The notes under the pieces are model-generated. The model did not search any database. It had not been told where the DNA came from and saw only the letters and a list, made by a program, of their open reading frames with translations. The position numbers and the translations under genes are program-made. Shown in pieces: positions 1,807 to 57,591 of a DNA stretch of 64,000 nt (the stretch's first letter is position 1; every line of letters starts with the position of its first letter). Source of the stretch: Phytohabitans rumicis. GTDB taxonomy: Bacteria; Actinomycetota; Actinomycetes; Mycobacteriales; Micromonosporaceae. The DNA lies in assembly GCF_011764445.1 (NCBI RefSeq), contig NZ_BLPG01000001.1, positions 6,155,001-6,219,000 of the forward strand. The letters are read 5' to 3'.

Positions 1807-1882
1807 GATCAAGGAATCGGGCGCCGATCAAGGGCAAAGGGTCATGGTTTGGAGATCAAAGCACGGCCGTTTGCCCTTGATC
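1807..1882 (+). repeat. 57-bp palindromic element, copy 1 (left outer half-site only)
   Basis: The core runs GATC to GATC at 1826-1882 with a GGAGATCAAAG-oriented spacer (orientation P). The outer GATCAAGG begins exactly 19 bp before the core. It lies between the MFS gene and the glycosyltransferase, which point the same way. Confidence 0.9.
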
Positions 1883-1915
1883 GACGCGGAAAAGGGGGAC
1901 TGGTAGCGTGCGGGC

Positions 1916-2881
1916 GTGGTTGGCTCCGCGCCGGCACTCTCCGTGGTCGTGCCGATGTTCAACGAGGAATCCGTGCTGCCGCTGCTCGTGACGCGGCTGC
2001 GCGGGGTGCTCGACGCGCTCGGCGAGCCCTACGAGGTGGTGGCGGTCGACGACGGCAGCACCGACCGCACCGCGGTGGCGTTGCACGCCACACGCCGGCA
2101 GTGGCCGCAGCTTCGGGTGCTGCGGCTGCGCCGCAACAGCGGGCATCAGGCCGCGCTGCTCGCCGGGCTGATGCGGGCCCGCGGGGCGTACGTGGTCAGC
2201 ATCGACGCGGACCTGCAGGACCCGCCGGAGACCATCGTCGACATGCTGCGGCTCGCGCGCTCCGACGGCCTCGACATCGTGTACGGCGTGCGCGCCGACC
2301 GCAGCGCCGACACTCCCTTCAAGCGGTGGACGGCGGGCGTCTACTACCGGTTGATGCGCCGCCTGGTGGGCAAGGACGTGCCCGCGCACGCCGGGGACTT
2401 CCGGTTGCTGAGCCAGGCGGCCGTGCAGGCGTTGCGGGAGCTGCCCGAGCGCACGCCGGTGCTGCGGCTGGTCGTGCCGTGGCTGGGCTTTCCCAGTGGC
2501 GAGGTGGCGTTCCAGCGCGAGGAGCGGGCCGCCGGCCGGACGAAGTACCCGCTGTCCCGGATGGTGGGGCTGGCCGCGGACAGCGTGACCAGCTTCTCCG
2601 CCGCGCCGCTGCGGGTCGCCACCTGGCTCGGCCTCGCCGGGGTCGCCGTCTGCGTGGTGCTGGTGGTGATCGCGATGATCGCGTACCTCCGGGGCGGCAC
2701 GGTCACCGGCTGGCCCTCGCTGTACCTGGCGGTGCTCTTCCTCGGCGCGGTACAGCTGCTGTGCCTCGGGCTGCTGGGGGAGTACGTGGCGCGCATCTAC
2801 ACCGCGGTGCAGGCGCGCCCGGCGTACTACGTCGCGGACGACACGGACGCGCCGGTCGAGCTCACCGACAGCCTGCGGTGA
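1916..2881 (+). CDS. Family 2 glycosyltransferase, polyprenyl-phosphate sugar synthase type
   Basis: This 321-residue protein has the GT-A fold signature of DPM1/GtrB-like enzymes: VVVPMFNEE near residues 10-18, the nucleotide-binding DDGS at 45-48, and the metal-binding DAD at 97-99 followed by LQDPPE. Two membrane segments lie near residues 236-262 and 275-300, as in GtrB-like enzymes that load a sugar onto a polyprenyl phosphate at the inner membrane face. The GTG at 1916 is used. Its stop overlaps the GTG of the next gene by four bases, so the two are translationally coupled. The likely role is making a lipid-linked sugar for a cell-surface polymer; which sugar is not visible. Confidence 0.88.
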   Translation: MVGSAPALSVVVPMFNEESVLPLLVTRLRGVLDALGEPYEVVAVDDGSTDRTAVALHATRRQWPQLRVLRLRRNSGHQAALLAGLMRARGAYVVSIDADLQDPPETIVDMLRLARSDGLDIVYGVRADRSADTPFKRWTAGVYYRLMRRLVGKDVPAHAGDFRLLSQAAVQALRELPERTPVLRLVVPWLGFPSGEVAFQREERAAGRTKYPLSRMVGLAADSVTSFSAAPLRVATWLGLAGVAVCVVLVVIAMIAYLRGGTVTGWPSLYLAVLFLGAVQLLCLGLLGEYVARIYTAVQARPAYYVADDTDAPVELTDSLR

Positions 2882-5031
2882 CGGCGACGGCGAGCCGCCC
2901 GGCGGAGCAGCGCACCGAGCAGGGGACGGACCCTGGCGTACCAGATAAGGCGCGGCGCTGGGCCCCGGCGGCGGTGGCCTTCGCGGTGGTGGCCTTCTTC
3001 CTGATCGTCTCCGGGACGCCGGTGCTGGACGTCGCGCGCTACGCCGCGTATGCGGCGCTCGCGGTGATGTTGCCCGGCACGCTGGTCTACCGGGCGCTGC
3101 GGCGGACGCCGCGCACGCTGGTCGAAGACCTGGCGATGGGCGCGGCGGTCGGGCTGGTGCTGGAGCTGGCGGCGTGGTTCGGGTTCGTGTCGGTGGGGGC
3201 CGAACGGTGGCTGTGGGCGTGGCCGGCACTGGTCGTGGTGGCGTTCGTGGCGGTGCGGCCACTGCGCCGGCACTGGGTGGTGCGCGGCTACGAGCGGGTG
3301 CCGGTGGGCTGGTCGTGGGCGGTGGCCGCGGTCGTCGCCGGCTTCACCGTGTACCTGTGGGACTCGTTCCTGCGGCGCAACCCGATCCTGCCGGCCGGCG
3401 AGGGGCAGGCGCAGTACCTCGACCTGGCGTTCCAGATGTCGATCGCGGGCGCGGCCAAGCACCAGGCGCCGCCGGACCTGCCGCAGGTGGCGGGGGAGCC
3501 GCTGCACTACCACTGGTTCGGGTTCGCGCACATGGGGGCGGCCTCGCTGGTCAGCGGGGTGGACCTGCCGACGGTGTTCCTGCGGCTGGCGGTGCCGGCG
3601 CTGTGCGCGCTCGCGATCGTGCTGGTCGCGGTGGTGGGGTGGCGGGTCAGCGACCGGCCGTACGTGGGCGTCGGCGCGGCGGTGCTGATGTTCACGATCG
3701 GCGAGTTCGGCTTCGAGAACGGGATCCGGCAGCTCTTCGGCACGCAGGTGACGTTCATCGTGTGGGGCAGCCCGTCGATGACGTACAGCTGGGTGTTGCT
3801 GTTTCCGCTGATCGCGGTGCTGGTGTCGCTGTTGCGCGGGGGCGGCGGCTGGGCGCTGGCGGCCCTGTTCCTGCTGGGGTCCACCGGGGCGAAGGCCAGC
3901 TCGGTGCCCGTGGTGGCGGGCGCGCTCGGGCTGACCGCCCTGGTCCTTTTCGTACGCCGCCGGCGGCTGCCGTGGGTGGTGCTGGGCGCGCTGGGACTGG
4001 CCGTGGTGGCGCAGGTGTTCGCCACGGCGGTGCTGTTCGCGTTCGAGAGCCACGGGGTCAAGGTCGAGCCGTTGCAGGGGCTGCGGCCGTACGCGTCTTC
4101 CACCCTCGCCTGGCCGCTAGCCGCGGTCGCGTTCCTGCTCAACATGCAGCTGCGGCTGGTCGGGATCGTGGGCCTGGGCCGGCGTGTCTTCACCGACCCG
4201 GAGAAGGTCTTCCTGCTGGCCGGCGCGGTCGTCGGGCCCCTGCTGTACCTCACGCTGGGCCACCCTGGCAGCAGCAACCAGTACTTCGTGCGGGCCGGGT
4301 TCGCGTTCGGCGTGATCCTGTCGGCATGGGGCTGGGCCAGCGTCGTCGGGCGGCTCGATCGGCGGCTGGCGGCGTTCGCGGTCGGGTTCGGGGTGCTGCT
4401 GTGCCTGGTCCAGCTCGTCTTCGGGCCGGTGTCGGCGCGGCGGCCGCTGGTGCCGCTGCTGCTGTGGGCGTTGGCGCTCGGCGTCGTGCTGTTCCTGGTG
4501 CTGCGTCGGCGCCCGGCCTACCTGCTCACCGCGATCCTGGTGGCCGGCGCTCCCGGGCTGGTCATGGACGCGGCGGCGGCGCACCGGCAGCCCAACGGCG
4601 GCGCGTACCCAACGGCGGCGCTGCCCGCCTCCCGGGTCGCCGCGGCCCGCTGGGTGTACGCGCACAGCGACCCCGATGACGTGCTGGCCACCAACGTGCA
4701 CTGCAACGAGGTCGTCAAGGGGTTGTGCGACGCGCGCGCGTTCTGGCTGAGCGGGTACGCCGAGCGGTCGGTGCTGGTCGAGGGCTGGACGTTCGCGCCG
4801 CGGATGATGGGGCTGCCGGGCGGGGCCGAGGAGCCGTTCTGGGACCCGGCGCTGCTGGCGGCCAACGACGCCGCGTTCTACCAGCCGACCTCGGCCGGGC
4901 TGGCGGTCCTGCGGGCGCGCGGGGTGCGCTGGCTGGTGGTGGACCGGAGTGTGCGGCCGGAGTCGCCGGGTCTCACATCGCTTGCGATCAAGCGTTACGA
5001 CCAGGGGCGCATGGCGGTCTATCAGATTTGA
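2878..5031 (+). CDS. Large polytopic membrane protein, possible GT-C-like glycosyltransferase
   Basis: The 717-residue protein has more than ten hydrophobic spans covering residues from about 35 to 560, then a soluble C-terminal part containing WVYAHSDPDDVLATNVHCNE and ending in a conserved-looking RWLVVDRS segment. I do not recognise a named family. The layout, with many spans and an extracytoplasmic C-terminal domain, and tight coupling (GTGA overlap) to a lipid-sugar synthase fit a GT-C transferase that would use the product of the upstream gene, but this is inference. The GTG at 2878 is chosen because of the overlap. The stop lies within a 27-bp tandem duplication. Confidence 0.72.
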   Translation: MTATASRPAEQRTEQGTDPGVPDKARRWAPAAVAFAVVAFFLIVSGTPVLDVARYAAYAALAVMLPGTLVYRALRRTPRTLVEDLAMGAAVGLVLELAAWFGFVSVGAERWLWAWPALVVVAFVAVRPLRRHWVVRGYERVPVGWSWAVAAVVAGFTVYLWDSFLRRNPILPAGEGQAQYLDLAFQMSIAGAAKHQAPPDLPQVAGEPLHYHWFGFAHMGAASLVSGVDLPTVFLRLAVPALCALAIVLVAVVGWRVSDRPYVGVGAAVLMFTIGEFGFENGIRQLFGTQVTFIVWGSPSMTYSWVLLFPLIAVLVSLLRGGGGWALAALFLLGSTGAKASSVPVVAGALGLTALVLFVRRRRLPWVVLGALGLAVVAQVFATAVLFAFESHGVKVEPLQGLRPYASSTLAWPLAAVAFLLNMQLRLVGIVGLGRRVFTDPEKVFLLAGAVVGPLLYLTLGHPGSSNQYFVRAGFAFGVILSAWGWASVVGRLDRRLAAFAVGFGVLLCLVQLVFGPVSARRPLVPLLLWALALGVVLFLVLRRRPAYLLTAILVAGAPGLVMDAAAAHRQPNGGAYPTAALPASRVAAARWVYAHSDPDDVLATNVHCNEVVKGLCDARAFWLSGYAERSVLVEGWTFAPRMMGLPGGAEEPFWDPALLAANDAAFYQPTSAGLAVLRARGVRWLVVDRSVRPESPGLTSLAIKRYDQGRMAVYQI

Positions 5032-5076
5032 CGGTGTGCCCTCAGCATTCAGATTTGACGGTGTGCCCTCAGCATT
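5023..5076. repeat. Perfect 27-bp tandem duplication at the ends of two convergent genes
   Basis: A 27-bp unit beginning CAGATTTGACGGTG and ending CTCAGCATT occurs at 5023-5049 and again at 5050-5076 without a mismatch. The stop of the membrane-protein gene (5029-5031) and that of the opposing methyltransferase gene (5049-5051) both fall inside it. Confidence 0.95.
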
Positions 5077-5747
5077 AGGGAGACGCCGGGCAGCGACTTC
5101 ACCGGCAGATAGCGCTCGGCCGCGATGATGGCGGTCAGCCCCATGTTGACCACATTGGGCAGGTCGTCCAGGTCGCTGCCGGTGGACTTGCGGCGCCGCC
5201 AGGCCGCCACCGGGCGCAGGAGCACGTTCCAGCTCCACAACTCGTCGATGACCAGGCCGGCCTTCTCCACCACCGAGGTGAGCGTGTCCCGGGTGTAGCG
5301 GCGCACGTGCCCGACGGCCACGTCGTGCGCCGACCAGAGCCGCATGTCGCACGGCACCGCGATCAGCGCCGTACCGCCCGGGCGGAGGGTGCGGTGGATC
5401 TCCCCGGCGGCGGCGTGGTCCTCGTCGATGTGCTCGAGGATGTCGAACGCGACGACCAGGTCCAGGCTGGCGCTGGGCAGCGGGAGCGCGCGGGCGTCGG
5501 CCCGGATGACGTTGAGTCCGCGCTCGGCGGCGACCTGCGCGCCGTCCGGGCTGTACTCCAGTGCGACCGGCTGCCAGCCGTTGGCGCGCAGGACGCGCGT
5601 GTTACCGCCGCCGGCGGCGCCGATGTCGAGCGCCGTGCCCGGCCTGGGCAGCTTCTTCAGCGCCCGGGAAAGCAGGGCACGACGCTCCCGGTACCACCAG
5701 TGGGTGTCCTCAAGGGCGGCGAGCTTGCGGATCTCGGTCGCTTCCAT
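5049..5747 (-). CDS. Class I SAM-dependent methyltransferase
   Basis: The 232-residue protein shows the Rossmann-fold SAM signature LDIGAAGGGNT at residues 40-50, an acidic residue after strand two (ALEYSP), and DILEHIDEDHAA in the post-motif position, followed by LRPGGTALIAVP. This is the Methyltransf_11 type. The substrate is not evident; nearness to glycosyltransferase-type genes suggests a sugar or lipid carrier, but they are on the other strand. Its last codons and stop lie in the tandem duplication described above. The ATG at 5747 is the natural start. Confidence 0.85.
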   Translation of the reverse strand: MEATEIRKLAALEDTHWWYRERRALLSRALKKLPRPGTALDIGAAGGGNTRVLRANGWQPVALEYSPDGAQVAAERGLNVIRADARALPLPSASLDLVVAFDILEHIDEDHAAAGEIHRTLRPGGTALIAVPCDMRLWSAHDVAVGHVRRYTRDTLTSVVEKAGLVIDELWSWNVLLRPVAAWRRRKSTGSDLDDLPNVVNMGLTAIIAAERYLPVKSLPGVSLMLRAHRQI

Positions 5748-5789
5748 CCGCTAGATGTTAGGAGGGACGCCCGCCGATGTAAAAAGCAC

Positions 5790-7218
5790 TCAGAGTGGGA
5801 TATTGCCGTGCGCCCCCCGAGCCGCTGGGGCGGCCGCGAGCGCCTCGGCGATGCGGCGGCGGGTCTCGCTCGGCTTGATGACGTCGTCGACCACGCCGAT
5901 CTCCAGGGCGCGGTTGACGCCGCCGGCCACCCGGGTCTGCTCCTCGATGAGCTGCGTGCGTAGCGCCTCGCGCTCCTCCGGCGGTGCGGCGGCGAGCTTC
6001 TTGCGGTACAGGATGTTGACCGCCGCCGACGCGCCCATGACCGCGAGCTCCGCGCTCGGCCAGGCGAAGACCGCGGTCGCGCCCAGCGAGCGGGAGTTCA
6101 TCGCGATGTACGCGCCGCCGTACGCCTTGCGCGTCACCAGCGTCACCCGCGGCACCACGGCCTCGGCGAACGCGTGCAGCAGCTTCGCGCCGCGCCGGAC
6201 GACGCCGTCCCACTCCTGGCCCAGGCCGGGCAGGTAGCCGGGCACGTCGACCAGCACGATCAGGGGTACGCCGAGCGCGTCGCACATCCGCACGAAGCGG
6301 GCCGCCTTCTCGGCGCTGGCCGAGTCCAGGCAGCCGCCGAGGCGCAGCGGGTTGTTGGCGATCACGCCGACGGTACGCCCGGCGAAGCGGCCCAGCGTGG
6401 TCACGATGTTCGGCGCCCAGCGCGCGTGCAGCTCGACGGACTCCGCCCCGTCCAGCAGCGCCTTGACCACCGGCTTCACGTCGTACGCGCGGTTGGTCTC
6501 GGCGGGCATCGCGGCGGCCATGTCGTGGCCGTCCCTTCGACGCCAACGGGCACGTCCGCGGGGAGAGCCGGCCCTGGTGGCCGAGCAGGTGCGCCAGCTT
6601 GCGCGCCTCGGCCAGCGCCGTCGCGTCGTCCTTCGTGGTCACGTGCACGACGCCGGAGCGCCGGCCGTGCGGCTCGGGGCCGCCCAGGCGCTCCATGTCG
6701 ACCTGCTCGCCGGTGACCGACCGGACCACCTCCGGCCCGGTCACGAAGATGCGCCCGGCGCCGCCCATCACCACGATGTCGGTCAGCGCCGGCCCGTACG
6801 CGGCACCGCCGGCGGCCGGGCCGAGCACCACCGAGATCTGCGGTACGCGGCCGGAGGCGCGCACCATCGCGGCGAACACCTGGCCGACCGCGTCGAGCGC
6901 GACCACGCCCTCGGCGAGCCGGGCGCCGCCGGAGTGCCACAGGCCGAGCACCGGCACCCGTTCGCGGACGGCCGCGTCGATCGCGTCGACGACGTGGCGG
7001 CAGCCCTCGCTGCCCATCGCGCCGCCCATCCGGGCGCCATCGCTGGCGTACGCGACGGCCGGTGTGCCGTCGATCTCCCCGCGGGCCCAGAGCACGCCCG
7101 AGTCGTCGCGCGGCATCATCAGCCGGAGCGAGCCGGCGTCGAAGAGGCCGCGCAGCCGCAGCTCGGGGTCGCGGTAGTCCACGGTGGACGAATCGGCGCT
7201 GACAGATGTGGTGGTCAC
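5790..7218 (-). CDS. accD: Acyl-CoA carboxylase carboxyltransferase beta subunit (frame broken twice)
   Basis: The carboxyltransferase of acyl-CoA carboxylase transfers CO2 from biotin to acetyl- or propionyl-CoA, supplying malonyl units. The first half (GLWHSGGARLAEG, GPAAGGAAYGPAL) and second half (ELHARWAPNIVTTLGR, RMCDALGVPLIVLVDVPGYL, GGAYIAMNSRSLGA) lie in different frames. They join through one missing base near 6552-6562 and another near 6522-6535; with both restored the gene is exactly 477 codons, close to mycobacterial AccD6 at about 473 residues. The GTG at 7218 is chosen because GGGAGG lies eight bases upstream, whereas the in-frame ATG at 7233 precedes that site. It ends the fab operon, the place of accD6 in mycobacteria. 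Confidence 0.85.
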
Positions 7219-7232
7219 GGCGGGTCCTCCCA

Positions 7233-8456
<1,224 letters not shown>

Positions 8457-8458
8457 GA

Positions 8459-12181: not shown

Positions 12182-12846
12182 ATGGCCGGGATGATCGCCC
12201 GGATCCCGCTGCTCGTGCCGTCGGTGGCGCTGGCCGCGTTCCTGACCCTCACGGCCCTCGTGACCGCAGACTGGGCACCGGTCGACCGCTTCGACGTCGC
12301 GATGAGTGACGACATGCGCCGGTACGGACACGAGCACCTCGGGCTGATCGACGTCCTGCGCGTGGTGACCGACGTGGCGGCCACGCTCCCGTTCGTGGCG
12401 GCCGGCATCGCGGCGACGGCGTTCCTGCTGGCGACCGGCCGGCGCCGCCCGGCGTACCTGTGCGCCTGGGTGACCGTGCTGATCCCGGTGCTGTGGGGCG
12501 CCATGCACTGGCTGCTGACCCGCCCGCGCCCGCAGGACGGCTTCGTGCTCGTCGACAGCAACGGCTTCCCCAGCGGCCATACCTCGCACGCGACCGCGGC
12601 CGGCCTGGTCGCGGTGCTCCTCCTCTGGCCGCATCTCGCACGCGCCGGCCGGATCGCCGTGGTCGCGCTGGCGGTGGTGTTCGCCGTGTTCATCGGCGCG
12701 ACCCGGGTGATCCTGCTGGCCCACTGGCCCACCGATGTACTCGGCGGCTGGCTCCTCGCATTCGCGGTAGTCCCCTTGGTGGCCCGCGCCCTCTCCGCCC
12801 CCACGGCCCTTTCCCTGCCGATCAAGGGCATATGGTCGTGGTTTGA
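12182..12846 (+). CDS. PAP2-family phosphatase, 3' end running into a palindromic element
   Basis: The membrane phosphatase has the three PAP2 signature blocks: LTRPRPQDG, FPSGHTSHATA and TRVILLAHWPTDVLGGWLLA, within five or six membrane spans. It should remove phosphate from a lipid such as phosphatidate or undecaprenyl pyrophosphate. As printed, the frame has no stop after the last span and stays open through two palindromic elements to 13582, opposite the next gene, which is not credible. Restoring one C in the run at 12799-12803 ends it at 12846 with 222 codons, a normal size. Even then the last dozen codons lie in the element. The ATG at 12182 is chosen; 12191 is an alternative. Confidence 0.72.
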
Positions 12847-12895
12847 TCTCCAATCCACGGCCGTATGCCCTTGGTCGACGCAGAAGTCCTTGATC
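12820..12895 (-). repeat. 57-bp palindromic element, copy 2 (right outer half-site only)
   Basis: The core is 12820-12876, spacer in the reverse orientation (TTTGATCTCC), with the right-hand terminal GATC changed to GGTC. The outer GATC ends exactly 19 bp past the core. Confidence 0.88.
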
Positions 12896-13023
12896 GACGA
12901 GAGGGGCAGAGCGCTGGGCGCCGCCAACCCCGGGCCGGCGCAAGATCTGGCGGCCACGGGGCCATCCGGAATGCGCCCACGCGGCGAGCGCCGTCACGAG
13001 TCCCGCCGCAGCGGCGCCTCACC

Positions 13024-13099
13024 GATCAAGGACTTTCGCGTCGATCAAGGGCAAACGGCCGTGGATTGGAGATCAAAGCACGACCATATGCCCTTGATC
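13024..13099 (+). repeat. 57-bp palindromic element, copy 3 (left outer half-site only)
   Basis: The core is 13043-13099 in orientation P, with the outer GATC 19 bp before it. The last base of the following GATCGACG begins a 16-bp tandem repeat. It lies between convergent genes. Confidence 0.9.
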
Positions 13100-13163
13100 G
13101 ACGAGGAAAGGCAGGGACGAGGAAAGGCAGGGACGAGGAAAGGCAGGGACGAGGAAAGGCAGG
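13100..13163. repeat. 16-bp tandem repeat, four perfect copies
   Basis: The unit GACGAGGAAAGGCAGG is repeated four times from 13100 to 13163. It starts exactly at the right edge of palindromic element copy 3. Confidence 0.95.
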
Positions 13164-13197
13164 GTGGCGCAGAGAGGCCGGGTGGCGGGGCTGTGAG

Positions 13198-13842
13198 TTA
13201 TCGCAGGTTGAGGTCTTGGGCTACGAGGGCTGCCTGGACGCGGGTGCGCAGGCCGAGCTTGGTCAGGATGCGGCTCACGTGGGTTTTCGTGGTGGACTCG
13301 GCCAGGTCGAGGCGCTTGGCGATCTGCTGGTTGGACAGGCCCTGGCCCAGGCAGGCGAGCACCTCGCGCTCGCGCGGTGTCAGCTCGGCGACCGCCGTAC
13401 GCAGGGCGTCGGGCGGGTCGGGGGCGGTCGCCGCGAACGCCTTGATCAGTCGCCGGGTCACCGCCGGAGCGATGAAGCCGTCGCCGCGGGCCACCGTGCG
13501 GACCGCGTCGACCAGGCCGTCGGCGTCGGTGTCCTTGAGCAGGAAGCCGGCCGCGCCCGCGCGCAGTGCCCCGAACACGTAGTCGTCGAGGTCGAACGTG
13601 GTCAGCACCAGCACGTCGGCGAGGTCCGCCGCGACGATCTCGCGGGTGGCGGAGATGCCGTCCAGCCGCGGCATGCGTACGTCCAGCACGGCCACGTCCG
13701 GCGCCAGCTCCCGGCACAGCGCGACGGCCTCCTCGCCGTCGGCCGCCTGCCCGACCACCTCGACGTCCGGCGCGCCGTCGAGGATCAGCACCAGGCCGGC
13801 GCGTACGGCCTGCTGGTCGTCCGCCACCACGACCCGGATCAC
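13198..13842 (-). CDS. NarL/LuxR-family response regulator
   Basis: The 214-residue protein has a receiver domain at residues 1-120, with acidic DD at 8-9, phosphorylated Asp in VAVLDVRMP near 54 and Lys in LLKDT near 104. A LuxR-type DNA-binding domain at about 148-210 has LTPREREVLACLGQGLSNQQIA. It overlaps the stop of the sensor gene by four bases and should be activated by that kinase. No target is visible. The PAP2 reading frame opposite is explained above as spurious. Confidence 0.93.
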   Translation of the reverse strand: MIRVVVADDQQAVRAGLVLILDGAPDVEVVGQAADGEEAVALCRELAPDVAVLDVRMPRLDGISATREIVAADLADVLVLTTFDLDDYVFGALRAGAAGFLLKDTDADGLVDAVRTVARGDGFIAPAVTRRLIKAFAATAPDPPDALRTAVAELTPREREVLACLGQGLSNQQIAKRLDLAESTTKTHVSRILTKLGLRTRVQAALVAQDLNLR

Positions 13843-22805: not shown

Positions 22806-22954
22806 GTCTCCTCCAAGGTGATAAGTGCCTTCTCCTCCTTGGTCGGAGCCACACCCTCACCCTCGACACCTTCGCCAAGGTTTCCTCCGCCAGCCGCGCG
22901 CCGCCCCGCCGCGGCCGTGCGCCGCGCCTCCGCCGGCCGTGCGCCGCCTCCGCC

Positions 22955-23049
22955 GATCAAGGCCCTCCCCGCCGATCAAGGGCAAACGGCCGTGCTTTGA
23001 TCTCCGATCCACGACCGTTTGCCCTTGATCGGCGTGAGAATCCTTGATC
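22955..23049 (-). repeat. 57-bp palindromic element, copy 4 (complete, 95 bp)
   Basis: The core 22974-23030 has perfect-looking arms: GATCAAGGGCAAACGGCCGTG, a 15-bp spacer, and CACGACCGTTTGCCCTTGATC with one mismatch. Outer half-sites lie exactly 19 bp out on both sides. The gene-free stretch 22806-23463 holds this copy, copy 5 and the inverted repeat between them. Confidence 0.92.
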
Positions 23050-23099
23050 GGCGCCGTGGAGTTAGGGGTTGGGCAGCGCGCGTCTGATCCCGCGGAGCT

Positions 23100-23198: not shown

Positions 23199-23309
23199 GG
23201 CGCTACGTGCTCGCTCGAATTGTGCGCCAGGCTCGGGAGGGGCGGTTTCTCGCCGCAGTCGCCACGCAGCGTCTTCCGGGCGGACCTTGACGAGCGCGCG
23301 CTCCGCGTC

Positions 23310-23385
23310 GATCAAGGATTTCTCCGTCGATCAAGGGCAAACGGTCGTGGTTTGGAGATCAAAGCACGGCCGTTTGCCCTTGATC
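23310..23385 (+). repeat. 57-bp palindromic element, copy 5 (left outer half-site only)
   Basis: The core is 23329-23385 in orientation P, outer GATC 19 bp before. To its right follows a low-complexity G/C stretch to the end of gltX. Confidence 0.9.
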
Positions 23386-23463
23386 GACGGAGAAGGCGCG
23401 CGCGGGGCGCGCGGGCGCGGCGGGTGCGGAGAGGGCGCGGCGGGGGAGGGGGCGCGGAGGGGG

Positions 23464-35296: not shown

Positions 35297-35300
35297 CCTC

Positions 35301-35360
35301 GGTGATCATGAGGTTAGCGTCAGGAGAGCGCTCTCGTCCGGCGCTAACTTCATGATCACC
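35301..35360. repeat. 60-bp nested palindrome, a third kind
   Basis: GGTGATCATGAGGTTAGCG (35301-35319) pairs with CGCTAACTTCATGATCACC (35342-35360) with one mismatch, and the 22-bp middle carries the perfect palindrome GAGAGCGCTCTC (35324-35335). It lies a few bases past the restored stop of the Excalibur gene and could act as its terminator. Confidence 0.9.
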
Positions 35361-35411
35361 GCCGGTGGTCACTCCCGTACACCGAGCCCCGTGGGGCCTG
35401 CCCGCCGCGTC

Positions 35412-35487
35412 GATCAAGGGATTCCGCGTCGATCAAGGGCAAACGGTCGTGGTTTAGAGATCGAACCACGGCCGTTTGCCCTTGATC
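35412..35487 (+). repeat. 57-bp palindromic element, copy 6 (left outer half-site only)
   Basis: The core is 35431-35487 in orientation P with the outer GATC 19 bp before it. Its right side runs into an 11-bp tandem repeat. Confidence 0.9.
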
Positions 35488-35505
35488 GACGCGGAGAGGG
35501 GCGGG

Positions 35506-39645: not shown

Positions 39646-39952
39646 CGTGAAGGCCGACGCGGCGGCTCGCCAGCCGTGGTTGGCGACTGCGGAGGCTGCC
39701 GAGGAGCGAGCCCAGATCCGGGCCGAGAACCTCGGTCGGATCCGTGGACACGAGCTGGCTGAATTGCGAAAGGCCGCCGGCCTCACGCAGGTCGAAGTCG
39801 CCCGAGCGCTCGGGGTGAGCCAGGCCCGCGTCTCGCAGATCGAGCACGGGAAGATCGACAGCCTGGATACCCTGCGCGCCTACGCCGAGGTCCTCGGCGC
39901 GGAGGTGTCGATCGTGGTATCAAAAGGTCCGCTCACATTGAAGGTTGCATGA
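39623..39952 (+). CDS. HTH antitoxin, HigA-like
   Basis: The 109-residue protein has an XRE-type helix-turn-helix at about residues 50-100: LAELRKAAGLTQVEVARALG followed by VSQARVSQIEHGKIDSLDTL. It should bind and neutralise the toxin and repress the shared promoter at 39245. ATG at 39623 follows AGGAGG by eight bases. Its TGA overlaps the ATG of the ThuA-like gene (ATGA), tying the toxin-antitoxin pair into a longer transcript. Confidence 0.88.
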   Translation: MSARRWSDVKADAAARQPWLATAEAAEERAQIRAENLGRIRGHELAELRKAAGLTQVEVARALGVSQARVSQIEHGKIDSLDTLRAYAEVLGAEVSIVVSKGPLTLKVA

Positions 39953-40673
39953 TCGCCAGCGCAGACATGTCACAGGGGACCGAGCGGGTGGCGCTGGTGG
40001 TGCGTGGCGGGTGGGAAGGCCACAGCCCGGTGGCCGCCACCGACATGTTCATCCCGTTCCTGAAGGAGCATGGCTTCCGCGTGCGCGTGGCGGACTCGCC
40101 CGAGGCGTACGCCGACGCCGACGCGATGGCCGGCACCGACCTGGTCGTGCAGTGCTACACGATGGGCACGATCGAGCCGCACCAGCTGGCCGGGCTCACG
40201 AGCGCCGTCCGCGCCGGCACCGGGCTGGCGGGTTGGCACGGGGGCATCGCCGACTCGTACCGGGCCTCCTCGGACTATCTGCAGCTCATCGGGGGCAGTT
40301 CGCGTGCCACCCGGCCAAGCACGAGTCGGAGTGGGACGGGCACAGCCAGGCCAACTACTTCATCCCGTACCGGGTGAACCTGCTGCCGCCCGCCCACAGC
40401 CACCCGATCACGGAGGGCCTCGACGACTTCGACCTCGTGACCGAGCAGTACTGGGTGCTCTGCGACGACTACATCGACGTGCTGGCCACCACGACGCTCA
40501 AGGCCCGCGATTGGGATCCGTGGGACCGCGACGTCACCTCGCCGGCCGTCTGGACCCGGCGGTGGGGCGAGGGCAAGATCTTCGTCGCCACGCCGGGGCA
40601 CAGCCTCGACGTCCTGGAGCACCGCACGGTCCGGACGATCATCGAACGGGGATTGTTGTGGGCGAGCAGGTAG
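39949..40673 (+). CDS. ThuA-like protein (frame broken once)
   Basis: ThuA-like proteins have a glutamine-amidotransferase-like fold and are tied to trehalose or other sugar use. Marks are VALVVRGGWEGHSPVAATD, TGLAGWHGGIADSY and NLLPPAHSHPITEGLDDFD, with PVWTRRWGEGKIFV-like ending. The frame breaks after LQLIGG; one G added to 40291-40295 gives QFACHPAKHESEWDGH. Length is then 242 codons from ATG 39949, or 236 from ATG 39967, which is nearer the homologous start. It is followed by a Gfo/Idh dehydrogenase overlapping by 16 bases, the usual ThuA partner. Confidence 0.87.
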
Positions 40674-49161: not shown

Positions 49162-49165
49162 TCGC

Positions 49166-51207: not shown

Positions 51208-51350
51208 GAAACTACGAGCGACGGTCACCGTTCCAGCGCACAGCGTGTGCGACCAGCACAAATGGGTGACGAACCGGCACAATCGGTCCGAGCCCCATAG
51301 GCCAAACGCTTAACCGGCCCGGTCGCCGGTCGAAGCAGGGGAGGGACGAC

Positions 51351-52580
51351 GTGGACGAGCTGCCCATTGGGCGCCGCGTCGCGTACTGGCGTGGGCGCCG
51401 AAAGATGTCGCAGCAGGTCTTCGCCGACCGGCTCGGCAAGTCGAAGAGCTGGGTGGACAAGGTCGAGCGGGGCGTACGCCGGCTGGACAAGTTCTCCGTC
51501 GTCTACGAGATCGCCGACGTGTTGCAGGTCGACGTGCAGCTCCTGCTCGGCAAGGATCCCGAGCGGCGCACGGACAGCATCAACTGCATCGACCAGGTCG
51601 AGGTGGAGGAGATCCGCGCGGCCCTGGAGCGGTACGACCAGATCAGTGCGTTCTTCTTCGCACCGACCCACGCGATGCCACTCGCCGAGATGCGCAAGGC
51701 GGTCAGCCACGCCTGGTTGACGTACCAGCATGCCAAGTACGGCGTGCTCGCCCGCGCCCTGCCGAAGCTGTTGCGCGACGGGCAGGCGGCCGACACCGCG
51801 CACGGCGAGGGGACGGATTCGTCCGAGGCCGCGCACCTGCTCGGGCAGGTCTACCAGATCGCCTCCTCGACGCTGCGCAAGCTGGGCGAGCACGAGCTGT
51901 CCTGGCTCGCCGCCGACCGGTCGATCGCGGTCTCCCAGCGGGCCGGCGACCAGCTGCTCGCCGGCATCGCCAGCTACCGGGTCGGCAGCGCGCTGCTCGC
52001 GCTGGGCCGGGCCCGGCCCGCGCTCGAGGTCAACGTCAACATCGCCAACCGGCTCGCGCCCGGCGGTGACAACGAGGCCACCCCAGAGCGGATCTCCGTG
52101 TACGGCATGCTGCTGCTCAACGGCGCGATGGCCGCCGCGCGGATCGGCGACACGGCGACCGTCCGCGACCTGCTGGGCGCCGCCGAAGAGGCGGCGCGCG
52201 AGCTCGGCAGCGACCAGAACCACCTCTGGACCTGCTTCGGCCCCACCAACGTGCAGCTGCACCGGGCGGCGGCGGCGGTGGAGCTGGGCGACGGTCGAGT
52301 CGCCGTGGAGACCCACGAGCGGATCGACGGCGACGCGTTCGCGGCGCTGCTGCCCGAGCGGCGGGCGCACCACTTCATCGACATCGCACGGGGCTACACC
52401 CAGATCGGCGACGTGGAACGGGCCAGCGAGATGCTGCTGGAGGGCGACCGGCTCGCCCCCTCCGAGATCCGCTGCCGGCCGATCGCGCAGGAGGTGCTCA
52501 CCGATGTGCTCCGGCGGACCAAGGGAACGCCCCCCGCACCGGTTGCGGAGCTGGCCGAGCACATGGGCGTTGGAGTTTGA
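51351..52580 (+). CDS. XRE-family regulator with TPR-like C-terminal domain
   Basis: The 409-residue protein has a helix-turn-helix at residues 8-65 (VAYWRGRRKMSQQVFADRLG, SKSWVDKVERGVRRLDKFSV) and a long all-helical TPR-like region (AIAVSQRAGDQLLAGIASYR, then GMLLLNGAMAAARIGDTATV). Such proteins are common in actinomycetes beside small partner genes and often act in development; a target is not known. GTG at 51351 is used, with GGGAGGGACGAC before. It lies four bases before the flavoprotein gene, and the two are likely one transcript. Confidence 0.9.
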   Translation: MDELPIGRRVAYWRGRRKMSQQVFADRLGKSKSWVDKVERGVRRLDKFSVVYEIADVLQVDVQLLLGKDPERRTDSINCIDQVEVEEIRAALERYDQISAFFFAPTHAMPLAEMRKAVSHAWLTYQHAKYGVLARALPKLLRDGQAADTAHGEGTDSSEAAHLLGQVYQIASSTLRKLGEHELSWLAADRSIAVSQRAGDQLLAGIASYRVGSALLALGRARPALEVNVNIANRLAPGGDNEATPERISVYGMLLLNGAMAAARIGDTATVRDLLGAAEEAARELGSDQNHLWTCFGPTNVQLHRAAAAVELGDGRVAVETHERIDGDAFAALLPERRAHHFIDIARGYTQIGDVERASEMLLEGDRLAPSEIRCRPIAQEVLTDVLRRTKGTPPAPVAELAEHMGVGV

Positions 52581-52584
52581 GAGA

Positions 52585-53133
52585 GTGAGCCGGGGCGTCC
52601 TCTACTGCATCGCCTGCGGGTCACCGGTCGCCCGGGACGTTGGCCGGCTCGTCACCATGGCCCAGCGTCAGGGCTGGGACGTGTGCGTCGTGGTCACGCC
52701 GGACGGCCGGAAGTTCGTGGACGTGCCGGCGCTCGCGCTGCTGACCGGGCACCCGGTGCGCACGCTCTACAAGAACCCCGGCGACCCGGACGTGCTGCCG
52801 GCGCCGGACGCGATCATCGTCGCGCCCGCCACGGTCAACACCGTCAACAAGTGGGCGGCCGGCATCGCGGACACGCTCGCCCTCGGCCTGGTCGTGGAGG
52901 GGCAGGGCAAGGGGCTGCCGATCGTCGCGATGCCGTACACGAACGCGGCGATGGGGTCCCATCCGGCGTTCCGGGAGAGCCTGATGCGGCTGCGCAGCTG
53001 GGGCGTCACCGTGCTCTTCGGCGACGACGTGGTGCCGCTGCACCCGCCGGGCACGGGCGAACTGCACCGGGACAGCTTCCCGTGGCACGCGGCGCTGGAG
53101 GCGCTGGAGGCGCGGGTCACGAGCCGAAGCTGA
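52585..53133 (+). CDS. Flavoprotein, DFP/HFCD superfamily
   Basis: The 182-residue protein has the flavin-binding fold: LYCIACGSPVARDVGRLVTM at the start, VVVTPDGRKFVDVP, and PDAIIVAPATVNTVNKWAAG with the conserved Asn, followed by MPYTNAAMGSHPAFRESLMR. The family includes phosphopantothenoylcysteine and peptidyl-Cys decarboxylases, but substrate residues are not clear. It starts with GTG at 52585, four bases past the regulator stop, so function under the same control is likely. The 3' end overlaps the opposing sensor gene by 17 bases. Confidence 0.85.
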   Translation: MSRGVLYCIACGSPVARDVGRLVTMAQRQGWDVCVVVTPDGRKFVDVPALALLTGHPVRTLYKNPGDPDVLPAPDAIIVAPATVNTVNKWAAGIADTLALGLVVEGQGKGLPIVAMPYTNAAMGSHPAFRESLMRLRSWGVTVLFGDDVVPLHPPGTGELHRDSFPWHAALEALEARVTSRS

Positions 53134-54385
53134 CCCGGACCCGGGCTCCGCCCAGCGCCGACGCGTTGCTGGCGACCGCGTCGCCGCCGTGCGCCCGCGC
53201 CACCGTCGCGACGATCGCCAGCCCCAGGCCGGACCCGCCGGGCGTGCCGCGGAACCGGTCGAACGCCACCGGCAGCAACTCCTCCGGGAAACCGGGGCCG
53301 TCGTCGTCGACGGTGACGACCAGCGCGCCGGCCGCCGATTGGGCGACGGCGACGCGTACCCGGCCCGCACGGGCCTGCGCCGCGTTGCCGACGAGGTTCG
53401 TCACCACCTGCTCCAGGCGTACGGCGTCGACCTCGGCGACCACCTCCTGCCCGGTGACCTCCACCGCGAGCCCGTGCAGCCGGGCCACCCGCTGGGCGGC
53501 GTCCCGTACGACGACGGTGGCATCGGTGGGCCCCCGGTCCAGCTCCAGCGTTCCGGCCCGGGCCCGCGCGATGACCAGCAGGTCGGTGGCCAACCGGCTG
53601 AGCCGGTCAGCCTCCACCAGCGCGGCCCGCATCGCCTGCCGCGGGTCGTCGTCGGCCAGGCCCAGCTCCAGTTCCGCGCGCAACACCGCAACGGGGGTAC
53701 GCAGCTCGTGCGCGGCGTCGTCGAGGAACGCCCGCTCGCGCTGGTTGGCCGCGTCGATGCGGTCGAGCATTTCGTTCAGCGTCCGCGCGAGCGTGGCGAT
53801 CTCGTCGGTGCCCGGCGGCTCGGGCAGCCGCCCGGTGTTCAGCTCGCGGGCCCGGCTCGTCATCGCCGCCACCGGACCGAGCGCGCCCCCCACCACCCGC
53901 CGTACGGCCAGGGTGAGCACGAGCACCAGCGCCGGCCCGATCATCGCGAGCCCGATCAGCACCCGCTGGGCGGTGGCGTCGACGGTGGCGAGGCTGGTGC
54001 CGACGACGAGCAGCCGCCCGTCGGGCAGCCGGCGGGCGGCCAGCATGGCGGTGCCGCGCAGGCCGGGACTCTTCTGCTCGACGACCTCGCCGGCCGCCTT
54101 GAGCGTCAGGACCGGCGTGCTGGGGGTGGCGGCCGACCGGGCCACCACCGCGCCCCCGGCGATCACCTGGGCGTACGGGTCGCGCCCGACCGGCAGGAGG
54201 TCGCCGGTCTCGACGGCCGCGCTGACGTCGTCGAGGCGGATCGCGAGGTCCTCCTCGGCCGCGTGCCGCAGCTCGGCGACCAGGGCCAGGTAGCCGGCCG
54301 CCAACACCACGATGACCACCACGGAGAGCCCGATGGCGTACGCCGCCACGAGGCGCCCGCGCAGCGTGCCTGGTAAGACCTTCAC
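53117..54385 (-). CDS. Sensor histidine kinase (HAMP, HisKA, HATPase)
   Basis: The 422-residue kinase has two spans (about 14-36 and 142-165) around a 105-residue outer loop, then HAMP, the HisKA block AFLDDAAHELRTPVAVLRAE with the phosphorylated His, TNLVGNAAQA as N-box, and DDDGPGFP and GSGLGLAI as G-boxes. GTG at 54385 (VKVLPGTLRGRLVAAY) is used. It is divergent from its presumed regulator by only 18 bases, rather than in an operon. Confidence 0.92.
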   Translation of the reverse strand: MKVLPGTLRGRLVAAYAIGLSVVVIVVLAAGYLALVAELRHAAEEDLAIRLDDVSAAVETGDLLPVGRDPYAQVIAGGAVVARSAATPSTPVLTLKAAGEVVEQKSPGLRGTAMLAARRLPDGRLLVVGTSLATVDATAQRVLIGLAMIGPALVLVLTLAVRRVVGGALGPVAAMTSRARELNTGRLPEPPGTDEIATLARTLNEMLDRIDAANQRERAFLDDAAHELRTPVAVLRAELELGLADDDPRQAMRAALVEADRLSRLATDLLVIARARAGTLELDRGPTDATVVVRDAAQRVARLHGLAVEVTGQEVVAEVDAVRLEQVVTNLVGNAAQARAGRVRVAVAQSAAGALVVTVDDDGPGFPEELLPVAFDRFRGTPGGSGLGLAIVATVARAHGGDAVASNASALGGARVRVSFGS

Positions 54386-54403
54386 GCGCGTACCGTAATC
54401 CCC

Positions 54404-55078
54404 GTGCGGCTGCTGCTGGTCGAGGACGATGCCGCCCTCGCCGACGTGCTCCGCCGCGGGCTGGCCGCCGAGGGGCACGCGGTGGACGTCGTCGGCACGG
54501 GCGTGGACGCGCTGTGGGCCGCCCGCGAGCAGCCGTACGACCTGCTGGTCCTGGACTTGATGATCCCCGAGCCGGACGGGGTGGCGGTGACCCGGACGCT
54601 GCGCGGCGAGGAGCGCTGGGTGCCGATCCTCGTGCTCACCGCGCGGGACGCCGTGCCCGACCGGGTCGCCGCGCTCGACGCGGGCGCCGACGACTACCTG
54701 GTCAAGCCGGTCGCGCTGCCCGAGCTGCGGGCCCGCGTCCGGGCGCTGACCCGGCGCGCCCCGGCCCGCCGCCCCACCGTGCTCAGCGTGGCCGGGATCG
54801 CGCTCGACCCGGCCCGCCGTACGGTCGCCCGGGACGGCCGGGCGGTGGCCCTGTCGGCCAAGGAGTTCGCGCTGCTGCACGAGCTGATGCGGCACGCCGG
54901 CGAGGTGCTGTCCCGCACCTACCTGATCGACCACGTGTGGGACAGCGCGTACGAGGGCGGCTCCAACGTCGTCGACGTCTACGTCCGGTACCTGCGGGAA
55001 AAGCTGGACCGGCCGTTCGGGCGGCAGAGCATCCAGACGGTACGCGGCGCCGGCTACCGCCTCAGCGAGTCCTCCTGA
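54404..55078 (+). CDS. OmpR-family response regulator
   Basis: The 224-residue regulator starts VRLLLVEDDAALADVL with GTG at 54404, has LLVLDLMIPEPDG with the phospho-accepting Asp near 52, DDYLVKPVA with Lys near 101, and the winged helix ending [13 protein letters not shown]. It pairs most likely with the divergent kinase. Its last 25 bases overlap the end of ftsH on the other strand. Confidence 0.93.
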   Translation: MRLLLVEDDAALADVLRRGLAAEGHAVDVVGTGVDALWAAREQPYDLLVLDLMIPEPDGVAVTRTLRGEERWVPILVLTARDAVPDRVAALDAGADDYLVKPVALPELRARVRALTRRAPARRPTVLSVAGIALDPARRTVARDGRAVALSAKEFALLHELMRHAGEVLSRTYLIDHVWDSAYEGGSNVVDVYVRYLREKLDRPFGRQSIQTVRGAGYRLSESS

Positions 55079-56928
55079 CCGCTGGCTTCCAAAATCCGCC
55101 GTACGGCCTTCCCATCCACCGTCTCCTGCTCCTGCAGCAGGCTGGTCAGCGCGTCCAGCGCCCGGCGGTGCCGGCGCAGCAGGTCCAGCGCGCGCTCCTC
55201 GGCCTCGCGCAGCAGCCGCGCCACCTCCTCGTCGATCCGGCGCTGCGTCGACTCGGAGAACGGCCGGGACAGCTCGGCGCCGCCGGGCAAGAACCCGGAT
55301 CCGCTCTCGGCCGGGTAGCCGACCGGTCCCAGCGCCGGTGACAGCCCGAACTCGCGGACCATCTTCTGCGCCAGCCCGGTGGCGCTGGCCAGATCGTTGG
55401 CCGCGCCGGTGGACGCCTCGCCCAGCACCAGCAACTCCGCCGCCCGGCCGCCCATCCGTACGGCCAGCGAGTCCAGCAGGTACGCCTCGCCGTACAGGTG
55501 CCGCTCGGCGTCGGGCAGCTGTTCGGTCGCGCCCAGCGCCATGCCGGCCGGCAGGATGGTCACCTTGGCCACCGGGTCGGCGTGCGGGGACACCGCCGCG
55601 ACCAGCGCGTGTCCGGACTCGTGGATGGCGACGGCCAGCTTCTCCTCCGGCAGCAGCAGGTTGCTGGACTCGCGGTGGCCGAGCAGGATCCGGTCCCGGG
55701 CCGCGTCGAAGTCCGCGGCGCCCACCTGGGTCCGCCCATCCCGTACGGCGTGGATCGCCGCCTCGTTGACCAAATTGGCCAGGTCCGCCCCGGAAAAGCC
55801 GGGCGTGGCCCGGGACACCACGTCGAAGTCCACGTCGGCGCCGACCGGCTTGCCACGCGCGTGCACGGTCAGGATCGCGGTGCGCTCGCGCTGCGCGGGC
55901 AGGCCCACGGTGACCTGGCGGTCGAACCGTCCGGGCCGCAGCAGCGCCGCGTCCAGCGTGTCCGGGCGGTTGGTCGCGGCGATCACCACCACGCCGCCGG
56001 CCTGGTCGAAGCCGTCCATCTCGGCGAGCATCTGGTTGAGCGTCTGCTCCCGCTCGTCGTTCCCGCCGCCGACGGCCAGCCCGCCGCGGCGCGCGCCCAG
56101 CGCGTCGATCTCGTCGATGAAGATGATGGACGGCGCGCGGCGGCGGGCGTCGGCGAAGAGGTCCCGCACCCGGGAGGCGCCCACGCCCACGAACATCTCC
56201 ACGAAGCCCGACCCGGACACCGACAGGAACGGCACCCGCGCCTCGCCGGCCACCGCCCGCGCCAGCAAGGTCTTACCGGTGCCCGGCGGCCCGACCAGCA
56301 GCACCCCGCGCGGCCCGGTGGCGCCCAACGCCTGGTAGCGCTCCGGCCGGCGCAGGTAGTCGACGACCTCGCTGATCTCCTGCTTGACCGCGTCGTACCC
56401 GGCCACGTCGGAGAACCGGGTCGACGGCCGCTCGGTGTCGATGACCTTGGCGCGGGCCCGCCCGATGCCGCCGAAGCCACCCGGCCCGGTGATCTCGGCG
56501 ATCCCCCGCGCCGCGCGCCGCCCGGTCCACCAGAAGAGCCCGACCAGCAGGACCAGCGGCGCGAAGCTGCCCAGCAGCGTCCACCACGAGAACCCGGACC
56601 GGGTCGCCGTGATCGTCACGTTGTGCGCCCGCAGGTCCTGCTCCAGCCCGGTCGAGCCGAGCGCGGTCGGCAACTGCGTGGAGAAGGCGCGGCCGCCCGT
56701 CAGTTTCCCGTCGACCGCGCCTTCGTCATTGATCGACACCTGCTTGACGTGCCCCGCCTCCACCTGCGTGACGAACTCGCTGTACGTGTAGTGCGCCGGC
56801 TCGGTGGTCAGCAGGGTCGGCGCGATCAGGAGCGCGAGCGTCAGCACCAGGCCGGCGGGGATCAGCCAGCGCCGCCATGCCGGGCGCCCCCGTGGCGCAC
56901 CCGGCGGCTTTCGGGAGTCGATCGTCAT
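55054..56928 (-). CDS. ftsH: ATP-dependent membrane zinc metalloprotease FtsH
   Basis: The 624-residue protease has two spans (about 21-41 and 112-133) with a short outer loop between, the AAA+ module with Walker A in [12 protein letters not shown], Walker [31 protein letters not shown], and the zinc motif HESGH in [14 protein letters not shown]. It degrades membrane and some soluble proteins. It differs from the major actinobacterial FtsH (longer, beside folE or hpt), so this is probably a second, accessory copy. ATG at 56928. The palindromic element array lies just upstream. Confidence 0.92.
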
Positions 56929-57061
56929 GCCCCCACGGTCCGCCCGCGTCGGTGAGACAGTGATGAGAGCCCTCTGCGAGCGCCATCACAGCCCCCGCCC
57001 CGCCCGCCCCCGCTCGGGCCCGCGCGCCGCTTGCGGCCGCGCGCCGCTCGGGCGGTGCGTC

Positions 57062-57156
57062 GATCAAGGGCTTTTGCGTCGATCAAGGGCGAATGGTCGT
57101 GCTTTGATCTCTAAACCACGGCCATATGCCCTTGATCGGCGGGCAGGGCCTTGATC
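57062..57156 (-). repeat. 57-bp palindromic element, copy 7 (complete, 95 bp; array unit 1)
   Basis: The core is 57081-57137 in reverse orientation. Outer half-sites lie 19 bp out on both sides. It is the first of three copies in the gene-free stretch 56929-57738. Confidence 0.92.
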
Positions 57157-57157
57157 G

Positions 57158-57496
57158 GCGCGGCCGCGCGTCCCGCGAGCGCCATCACAGCACCGCGGTG
57201 GTGCGCGGCCGGCGCTGTGCCCGCACCGCACCGCGCGCCACGCCGGCGCGCAGCGCCGATCAAGGACTTTCGCGTCGATCAAGGGCGAACGGTCGTGCTT
57301 TGATCTCCAATCCACGGCCATTTGCCCTTGATCGGCGGGCAGGGCCTTGATCGGCGCGGCCGCCCGCCCCGCGAGCGCCATCGCAGCACCGCGGTGCGTG
57401 CATCGTGCCGGCGTGCAGCGCACTGCGGGGCACCGCGCGGTGCGCGGCCGGCGCTGTGCCCGCACCGCGCCGCGCGCCACGCCGGCGCGCAGCGCC
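57158..57496. repeat. Longer duplicated unit between the array copies
   Basis: The segment after copy 7 (57158-57199, containing GCGAGCGCCATCACAGCACC) recurs nearly unchanged after copy 8 (57354-57396). The segment before copy 8 (57197-57257, containing GCGGCCGGCGCTGTGCCCGC) recurs before copy 9 (57437-57496). The array therefore grew by duplication of about 200-240 bp units, not by independent insertion. Confidence 0.85.
57258..57352 (-). repeat. 57-bp palindromic element, copy 8 (complete, 95 bp; array unit 2)
   Basis: The core is 57277-57333 in reverse orientation, both outer half-sites present. It begins 196 bp after copy 7. Confidence 0.92.
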
Positions 57497-57591
57497 GATC
57501 AAGGACTTTCGCGTCGATCAAGGGCGAATGGTCGTGCTTTGATCTCTAAACCACGGCCATATGCCCTTGATCGACGGGCAAGCCCTTGATC
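57497..57591 (-). repeat. 57-bp palindromic element, copy 9 (complete, 95 bp; array unit 3)
   Basis: The core is 57516-57572 in reverse orientation, both outer half-sites present. It begins 239 bp after copy 8. Downstream, 57600-57738 is plain G/C-rich sequence in which I see nothing. Confidence 0.92.

What the first reader, a model, noticed from the sequence alone, without database searches (positions are those of the whole stretch)
1807..57591. Nine copies of a palindromic element with an invariant 57-bp core and 19-bp outer register
Nine gene-free sites (cores at 1826, 12820, 13043, 22974, 23329, 35431, 57081, 57277 and 57516) carry the same element. Each core is exactly 57 bp from GATC to GATC: 21-bp arms such as GATCAAGGGCAAACGGCCGTG around a 15-bp spacer. 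Every outer GATC half-site lies exactly 19 bp from the core. The spacer has a direction (GGAGATCAAAG or its complement) and both directions occur (4 and 5 copies). Read in one orientation, the left outer half-site is always present and the right only sometimes. Such fixed geometry suggests selection on a DNA or RNA structure or protein site, or a mobile REP-like unit moved by an enzyme encoded elsewhere. No transposase is in this window and no U-run follows, so a plain terminator does not explain it. I know of no named family that matches.
Basis: seen in the sequence. Interest (0 to 1): 0.78.

Follow-up and report, generated by a model that had tools for sequence, protein, structure and literature searches.

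The report
REPIN-like dispersed element without known transposase
The repeated palindrome is real: it is one of several hundred copies, in this soil actinomycete's genome, of a small scattered DNA element made of matching half-sites held at a fixed distance, it has relatives across its bacterial family, and no enzyme that could copy it has been found.

Summary
All nine elements are present with the stated 57-bp length and 19-bp register. The genome (probably Phytohabitans, Micromonosporaceae) has 574 copies at this geometry; one congener has 439 with different arms, four others none. Sister families with near-constant lengths of their own occur across the family.

Copies are enriched between convergent genes and depleted between divergent ones. 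At 5 of 6 testable own sites the element-rich congener lacks the element.

Length is held, but base pairing is not: in the samples of four genomes the two arms vary independently, and in G064 11 of 11 listed copies are 54 bp although mid-arm positions pair in only 3 to 5 of 11. This fits paired protein half-sites better than a selected RNA hairpin. At one orthologous site 26 of 30 genus-g4 genomes carry a 54-55-bp element of differing families.

Best reading: a REPIN-like, non-autonomous mobile element with an unidentified mobiliser. The RAYT transposase family is absent from both element-rich congeners. Function at gene 3' ends (transcription stop or architecture) is inferred, not shown.

The parts
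1803..1886 (+). F1 element, conserved block (core 1826-1882; left outer half-site at 1807)
   Evidence: no element at the orthologous place in G001 or in G002, G003, G004
12816..12899 (-). F1 element (core 12820-12876, ends in GGTC; outer half-site 12888-12895)
   Evidence: lies in the PAP2 reading frame; the congener G001 has an F1 copy with its own arms at the 3' end of the same gene, G003 and G005 have none
13020..13103 (+). F1 element (core 13043-13099)
   Evidence: faces the copy at 12816-12899; right flank is a 16-bp tandem repeat starting at GACG (read)
22951..23053 (-). F1 element with both outer half-sites (core 22974-23030)
   Evidence: region without element in G001-G005
23306..23389 (+). 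F1 element (core 23329-23385)
   Evidence: pairs with 22951-23053, left ends facing
35408..35491 (+). F1 element (core 35431-35487)
   Evidence: divergent gene context
35300..35361 (.). Hairpin of a second GATC-bounded family (GATCATGAGGTTAGCG...)
   Evidence: 55 matches of GATCATGA-N36..44-TCATGATC in the own genome
57058..57160 (-). F1 element with both outer half-sites (core 57081-57137)
57254..57356 (-). F1 element with both outer half-sites (core 57277-57333)
57493..57595 (-). F1 element with both outer half-sites (core 57516-57572)
12191..13582 (+). PAP2-family reading frame extended through two F1 copies
   Evidence: PF01569, E 1.7e-16

Best explanation
A REPIN-like, non-autonomous dispersed element. 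Shown here: its unit is two inverted copies of a sequence-specific half-site (GATCAAGG plus a family-specific inner part) at a fixed end-to-end distance, an asymmetric centre (GAGATC in F1), and a further half-site 19 bp outside the left arm; it exists in hundreds of copies in unrelated flanks, at places that congeners mostly lack, and each lineage has its own arm sequence and its own length. Inferred: a dimeric DNA-binding protein reads both half-sites at once, which is why spacing is kept while base pairing is not, and this protein (or a partner) is the recombinase that copies the element in trans, co-evolving with the arms; copies survive mainly downstream of genes because they do least harm there, and some may then serve as a bidirectional transcription stop or DNA-architecture site. 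The mobilising enzyme is not identified and is probably not a RAYT.
For: 574 copies own and 439 in G001 at the same 57-bp geometry, 0 in G002-G005, control 0. Arms species-specific: CGGYCGTG own against CGCACGTG in G001. At 6 testable own sites G001 lacks the element in 5 (1826, 22974, 23329, 2653880, 2657924) and has it in 1 (12820). No arm covariation within genomes: own 2445 of 2730 Watson-Crick against a shuffled mean of 2440 (130 copies); G001 566 of 630 against 566.7 (30 copies); G195 716 of 782 against 711.5, 601 of 3000 shuffles reach it (46 copies) and G241 492 of 513 against 488.9, 339 of 3000 (27 copies). G064: 11 of 11 listed copies are 54 bp; both arms keep GATCAAGGG and a CAC at 17-19 while positions 12-16 pair in 3 to 5 of 11. 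Outer register 19 bp also in G001 although the linker sequence differs. Three truncated intergenic copies keep the left half and lose the right. Inverted neighbours within 1.5 kb face left end to left end in 16 cases and never the other way (binomial p 3e-5). Context: 51 convergent, 44 codirectional, 5 divergent of 100.
Against: No mobiliser was found, so copying in trans is inference. Many copies do fold into very stable hairpins (-23 to -45 kcal/mol for the ten folded), and across species at one site the arms change together (432 of 468 pairs against a shuffled mean of 369, 0 of 2000); within two of the three family groups there some covariation remains (10 and 30 of 2000 shuffles reach it; third group 998 of 2000). 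No target-site duplication was detected. Retention of the arms at orthologous sites points to a host function that a purely selfish element would not need.
Confidence: 0.5

Rival explanations
1. Bidirectional hairpin terminators or 3'-UTR stabilisers: the transcribed palindrome folds and stops RNA polymerase or protects mRNA ends; families spread by conversion and selection.
For: Convergent intergenes enriched (43 of 92 copies against 18% of intergenic bases, p 2e-10) and divergent ones depleted (6 of 92 against 28%, p 5e-7). Strong predicted RNA folds. 26 of 30 orthologous g4 sites keep a GATC-bounded element between two convergent genes, two more have another hairpin (sequences). Arms more conserved than loops between G195 and G221: 2 of 144 against 20 of 76 (part of the arm was used to find the copies, but the 2 differences are all there are in the inner 80 positions too).
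Against: Arms do not covary within genomes; G064 keeps 54 bp without inner pairing; a terminator needs no fixed total length nor an outer half-site at 19 bp; no U-tract in the sequences read; no excess of G-U over A-C pairs on one strand (92 against 129 cells, and position 17 goes the other way).
Confidence: 0.2
2. Chromosomal protein-binding sites with a host function (nucleoid architecture, roadblock termination), spread by gene conversion or template switching rather than by a transposase.
For: Fixed geometry and independent half-sites; tandem half-site arrays in G064; whole-element replacement at one orthologous site, G221 against G195; arms kept while flanks diverge beyond alignment at two sites.
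Against: An essential chromosomal role would not be expected to be absent from four of six congeners; sites are mostly not shared between G000 and G001.
Confidence: 0.17
3. Classical REPIN moved by a RAYT (IS200/IS605-type Y1 transposase).
For: Paired inverted conserved ends at fixed distance, tandem clusters with flanks (four copies at 163-bp spacing near 8.0026 Mb), as described for REPINs (passages of PMC3116915).
Against: Y1_Tnp (PF01797) absent from the own genome while 5 of 14 control genomes ring; present in only 3 of 17 element-bearing genomes and not in G001; none of the four matching loci (1.7 to 3.4 kb) holds a GATC half-site. Genes beside the 8.0026-Mb cluster are peptidase M64, TetR and MFS.
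Confidence: 0.05
4. Palindromes kept perfect by a mutational process (quasi-palindrome correction), with no selection.
For: Arms change together between families and species.
Against: Such correction would make the two arms of a copy match; within genomes they do not.
Confidence: 0.03

Closest known systems
REPIN (paired inverted REP sequences; Pseudomonas fluorescens SBW25; PMC3116915, passages seen)
   Same: Two conserved inverted ends at a set distance, variable middle, hundreds of intergenic copies, tandem clusters including flanks, lineage-specific sequence types.
   Different: No RAYT in the own genome or G001; arms do not compensate within genomes, whereas the REPIN paper reports common compensatory changes in the spacer; extra half-site at 19 bp on one side; central asymmetric motif.
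CGTC-tagged REPs (PMC3733652; abstract and three sections read, further passages seen)
   Same: CGYC directly before the element, no dedicated transposase known, convergent and unidirectional intergenic position, head-to-head pairs.
   Different: CGTC REPs have 8-9-bp stems with 4-5-nt loops and an unpaired tag; here the arms are 18-22 bp, the tag is mirrored on the other side (GRCG), and same-direction neighbours are common (14 of 30 close pairs). The paper's text lists no Actinobacteria (0 occurrences).
BIME of Escherichia coli (recalled, not looked up here)
   Same: Inverted repeat units around small interchangeable central motifs.

Membership tests
REPIN/RAYT | Two inverted conserved ends at a fixed distance, many intergenic copies | tested here: met
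REPIN/RAYT | RAYT (Y1 transposase) encoded in the genome | tested here: not met
   PF01797: 0 in own genome, 3 of 17 element-bearing genomes
REPIN/RAYT | Each end contains a REP with 5' GTAG | tested here: not met
   ends read CGYC-GATCAAGG
REPIN/RAYT | Excision or transposition observed | not testable with these tools
   no population reads
CGTC-tagged REP | CGTC tag at one end, unpaired | tested here: not met
   CGYC present at the left end but mirrored by GRCG at the right, so paired
CGTC-tagged REP | 8-9-bp stem and 4-5-nt loop | tested here: not met
   21-bp arms, 15-bp middle
Intrinsic transcription terminator | Stable hairpin at gene 3' ends | tested here: met
Intrinsic transcription terminator | U-tract after the stem | tested here: not met
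   sequences
Intrinsic transcription terminator | Pairing conserved by compensation | tested here: inconclusive
   not within genomes; yes across species at one site
Intrinsic transcription terminator | RNA 3' ends at the site | not testable with these tools
   no transcript data
MITE | Target-site duplication | tested here: inconclusive
   no excess of matching 4-mers at the block ends, but the insertion boundary is not exactly known
MITE | Parent transposon with the same ends | tested here: inconclusive
   in the 1.24 Mb sampled, isolated half-sites flank no recognised transposase by reading; 88% of the genome not examined for this

The most novel reading that the evidence does not exclude
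A new class of dispersed bacterial element in which the selected unit is a set of protein half-sites at exact spacing and the palindrome is a by-product, copied by a RAYT-independent system that co-evolves with the half-sites in each lineage and can replace one family by another at the same gene-end site.
Probability: 0.3. Interest if true: 0.82.

Novelty: new variant of a known kind. Interest (0 to 1): 0.6.

Why it matters
How REP-like repeats that lack a RAYT spread is an open question (stated for CGTC REPs in PMC3733652). Here is a case with hundreds of copies, two element-rich and four element-poor congeners, and a family-wide set of sister elements of differing length and arm sequence, so the mobiliser can be sought by comparing gene content and by DNA pull-down. 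The finding that spacing is kept while pairing is not gives a simple test between DNA-protein and RNA-hairpin explanations of such repeats in general.

Tried and rejected
RAYT search: rejected as mobiliser. Rfam scan of the window at gathering threshold: RNase P and a tRNA only, nothing at the elements. Search for isolated half-sites marking an autonomous parent element: only truncated copies and chance matches in 1.24 Mb. Genes beside two multi-copy clusters: near 8.0026 Mb scanned with Pfam (no recombinase); near 505 kb only translated and read by eye. Pfam scan of 52 window proteins: no transposase. Target-site duplication: none seen. Strand-specific G-U excess: none. An early reading as a hairpin under compensatory selection, from the cross-species site, was given up when the within-genome tests showed no covariation. 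An early reading that orientation follows the direction of the upstream gene was given up: in codirectional contexts it is 22 against 22; what is biased is that the right end lies nearer to coding sequence (median 93 and 157 bp against 295 and 262). The 80 named loci (most of them Micromonospora) hold no GATCAAGG-N34..46-CCTTGATC match. Eight paper searches found no description; for PMC12306157 only one passage was seen. Gene calls are home-made and missed the PAP2 gene.
Full report
What is there. The nine elements are as described: 57 bp end to end, 4 in one and 5 in the other orientation, left outer half-site at 19 bp in 9 of 9 and right in 4 of 9. Corrections are in the observation check: one core ends in GGTC, arms pair at 18 to 20 of 21 positions, and a PAP2 reading frame passes through two of the copies.

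Where it is. The window is G000:C1:6155001-6219000 of a 10.7-Mb genome. Its genus is probably Phytohabitans: the congener G005 has a contig of 387,123 bp that matches in length and position the Phytohabitans maris contig. The g4 genomes used below are probably Micromonospora, judged only from their number and size and from the names.

How many. Own genome: 527 exact matches with a 20-50-bp gap, control 0, all listed ones 57 bp; 574 with the centre motif and up to 2 mismatches, 287 per strand; G001 439; G002-G005 none. In 354 family genomes, GATCAAGG-N36..44-CCTTGATC matches in 67 (17 of 44 genera), 564 in own, 413 in G001, then 89, 71, 50 and fewer; many single matches may be chance or coding. 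In 296 genomes drawn from the class, 7 match: own, G278 of the same family, G417 with 7 copies of a 56-bp kind, and four with one match each. Sister families in genus g4: GATCATGA...TCATGATC in 29 of 30 g4 genomes (9 to 84 copies) and 55 in own, 0 in G001 and G003; GATCAAGA...TCTTGATC in 18 of 33 genomes searched.

Anatomy. Information content over 100 oriented copies bounds the element at CGYC (-23) and GRCG (+61); with the right outer half-site it reaches +80. The unit CGYCGATCAAGG thus occurs at -23 and -4 and inverted at +61, with a fourth at +80 in about half. The centre is asymmetric, GAGATC in all 100 copies (positions 27-32). In G001 the outer register is also 19 bp with a different linker. 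In G064 half-sites form arrays at 20 bp (by eye). G014 copies lack an outer half-site but share a mirrored AATTCGCGTT / AACGCGAAT flank in most of the eight read.

Length without pairing. Arms vary independently within genomes: own 2445 of 2730 pairs against a shuffled mean of 2440, maximum 2469; G001 566 of 630 against 566.7; G195 716 of 782 against 711.5, G241 492 of 513 against 488.9 (both slightly above the mean, reached by 601 and 339 of 3000 shuffles). G064 is the clearest: 11 of 11 listed copies 54 bp, positions 12-16 pair in 3 to 5 of 11, yet both arms keep GATCAAGGG and CAC at 17-19. Against this, ten folded copies give -23 to -45 kcal/mol, nine of them better than all 200 shuffles and one (G064) matched by 7. 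Lengths: 100 of 100 at 57 in the own sample; 32 of 33 listed in G001; 47 of 50 listed at 55 and 3 at 56 in G195; 27 of 33 listed at 54 and 6 at 55 in G241; G032 mixes 56 and 57.

Context. With my simple gene copies lie between convergent, 43 between codirectional and 6 between divergent genes, 8 overlap a called gene; convergent intergenes are 18% and divergent 28% of intergenic bases (p 2e-10 and 5e-7). A coding-potential scan gives 51, 44 and 5 of 100. Close neighbours (under 1.5 kb): 16 face left end to left end, 0 the other way, 14 the same way. The right side of the element is G-rich on its strand (skew about +0.25 to +0.31 within 143 bp) and the left side weakly C-rich.

Gain, loss and replacement. 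Own sites against G001: absent at 1826, 22974, 23329, 2653880 and 2657924, present at 12820 with G001-type arms; at 22974/23329 one flanking gene is also missing in G001, and sites at 13043, 35431 and 2647804 could not be judged. G002, G003 and G004 lack the element at 1826. Two g4 genomes about 93% identical over aligned blocks, G195 and G221 (160 kb each): of six G221 copies four are shared, one is a different family at the same place in G195, one has no hairpin there, and G195 has two further GATCATGA copies beside a shared one. In the four shared pairs arms differ at 2 of 144 positions and middles at 20 of 76; copies were found by their ends, so the terminal 8 bp are biased, but the inner 80 arm positions hold the same 2 differences. 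At two of the four, the flanks no longer align while the element does.

One site, many species. The place of G221:806531 was found in all 121 g4 genomes searched (30 loci fetched). Of these 30, 26 hold a GATC-bounded element of 54 (5) or 55 bp (21), of several arm families; G245 has one with an indel, G288 and G330 another hairpin, G218 none. The centre motif is GAGATC in 10, GATCTC in 8 and neither in 8. Across species arms pair at 432 of 468 positions against a shuffled mean of 369; within family groups the excess is small (10, 30 and 998 of 2000 shuffles reach it). I read this as whole-element replacement: both arms belong to one family because one protein reads both.

Mobiliser. Y1_Tnp (RAYT family) is absent from own and G001 and present in 3 of 17 element-bearing genomes, with no half-site in the four loci. 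No transposase among 52 window proteins nor beside the 8.0026-Mb cluster. I could not compare whole gene contents, so the enzyme stays unknown.

Literature. PMC3733652 (abstract, sections on CGTC families, dimers and genome distribution, and passages) describes GTAG and CGTC REPs and says CGTC REPs lack a dedicated transposase; PMC3116915 (passages) describes REPINs; PMC12306157 (one passage). None describes this element. Eight searches of open-licence PMC papers gave nothing nearer; subscription papers were not searched.

Verdict. A new variant of the REP/REPIN kind: dispersed, lineage-specific, without RAYT, with spacing rather than pairing as the kept feature. Mobility in evolutionary terms is well supported; the protein, the copying step and any function at gene ends are inferred.

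Noticed in passing
window 39949-40673 (+): Two adjacent reading frames overlapping by 4 bases match the two halves of ThuA (PF06283 positions 2-110 and 122-209): apparently one gene split by a frameshift or sequence error.
   Followed up: no
own genome, 1.24 Mb sampled: A collection of further repeated intergenic hairpin families without GATC ends, e.g. TGCAAGGAAGGGCACCTTGTTA..., CGTGAGTAGGGCGCCCC..., GTGACTGGAACACCAGTGCTG..., ACGACTGTGGCGAGTAGTTGCC...; plus a 50-bp GATCAAGGCGTCCTTCAAGTCG family.
   Followed up: partly
L067, L090 and window flanks of F1 copies, e.g. window 13100-13165: Short GC-rich tandem repeats often start exactly at an element end (GACG...), and intergenes with F1 are much longer than in congeners.
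   Followed up: no
G000:C1 917,809-1,758,801: No F1 copy is listed in 0.84 Mb, against about 80 in the next 0.94 Mb: strongly uneven distribution.
   Followed up: no
G417 (same class, other family): Seven copies of a 56-bp GATCAAGGAGTAG...CTACTCCTTGATC element outside Micromonosporaceae.
   Followed up: no
A segment 2388501, 2798212; B segment 6140421 (own genome): Three truncated copies keep the two left half-sites and lose the right part, hinting at a directional copying process.
   Followed up: no
L090:2591-3137 (8,002,591-8,003,137): Four tandem F1 copies at exactly 163-bp spacing with their flanks duplicated, like REPIN clusters.
   Followed up: partly
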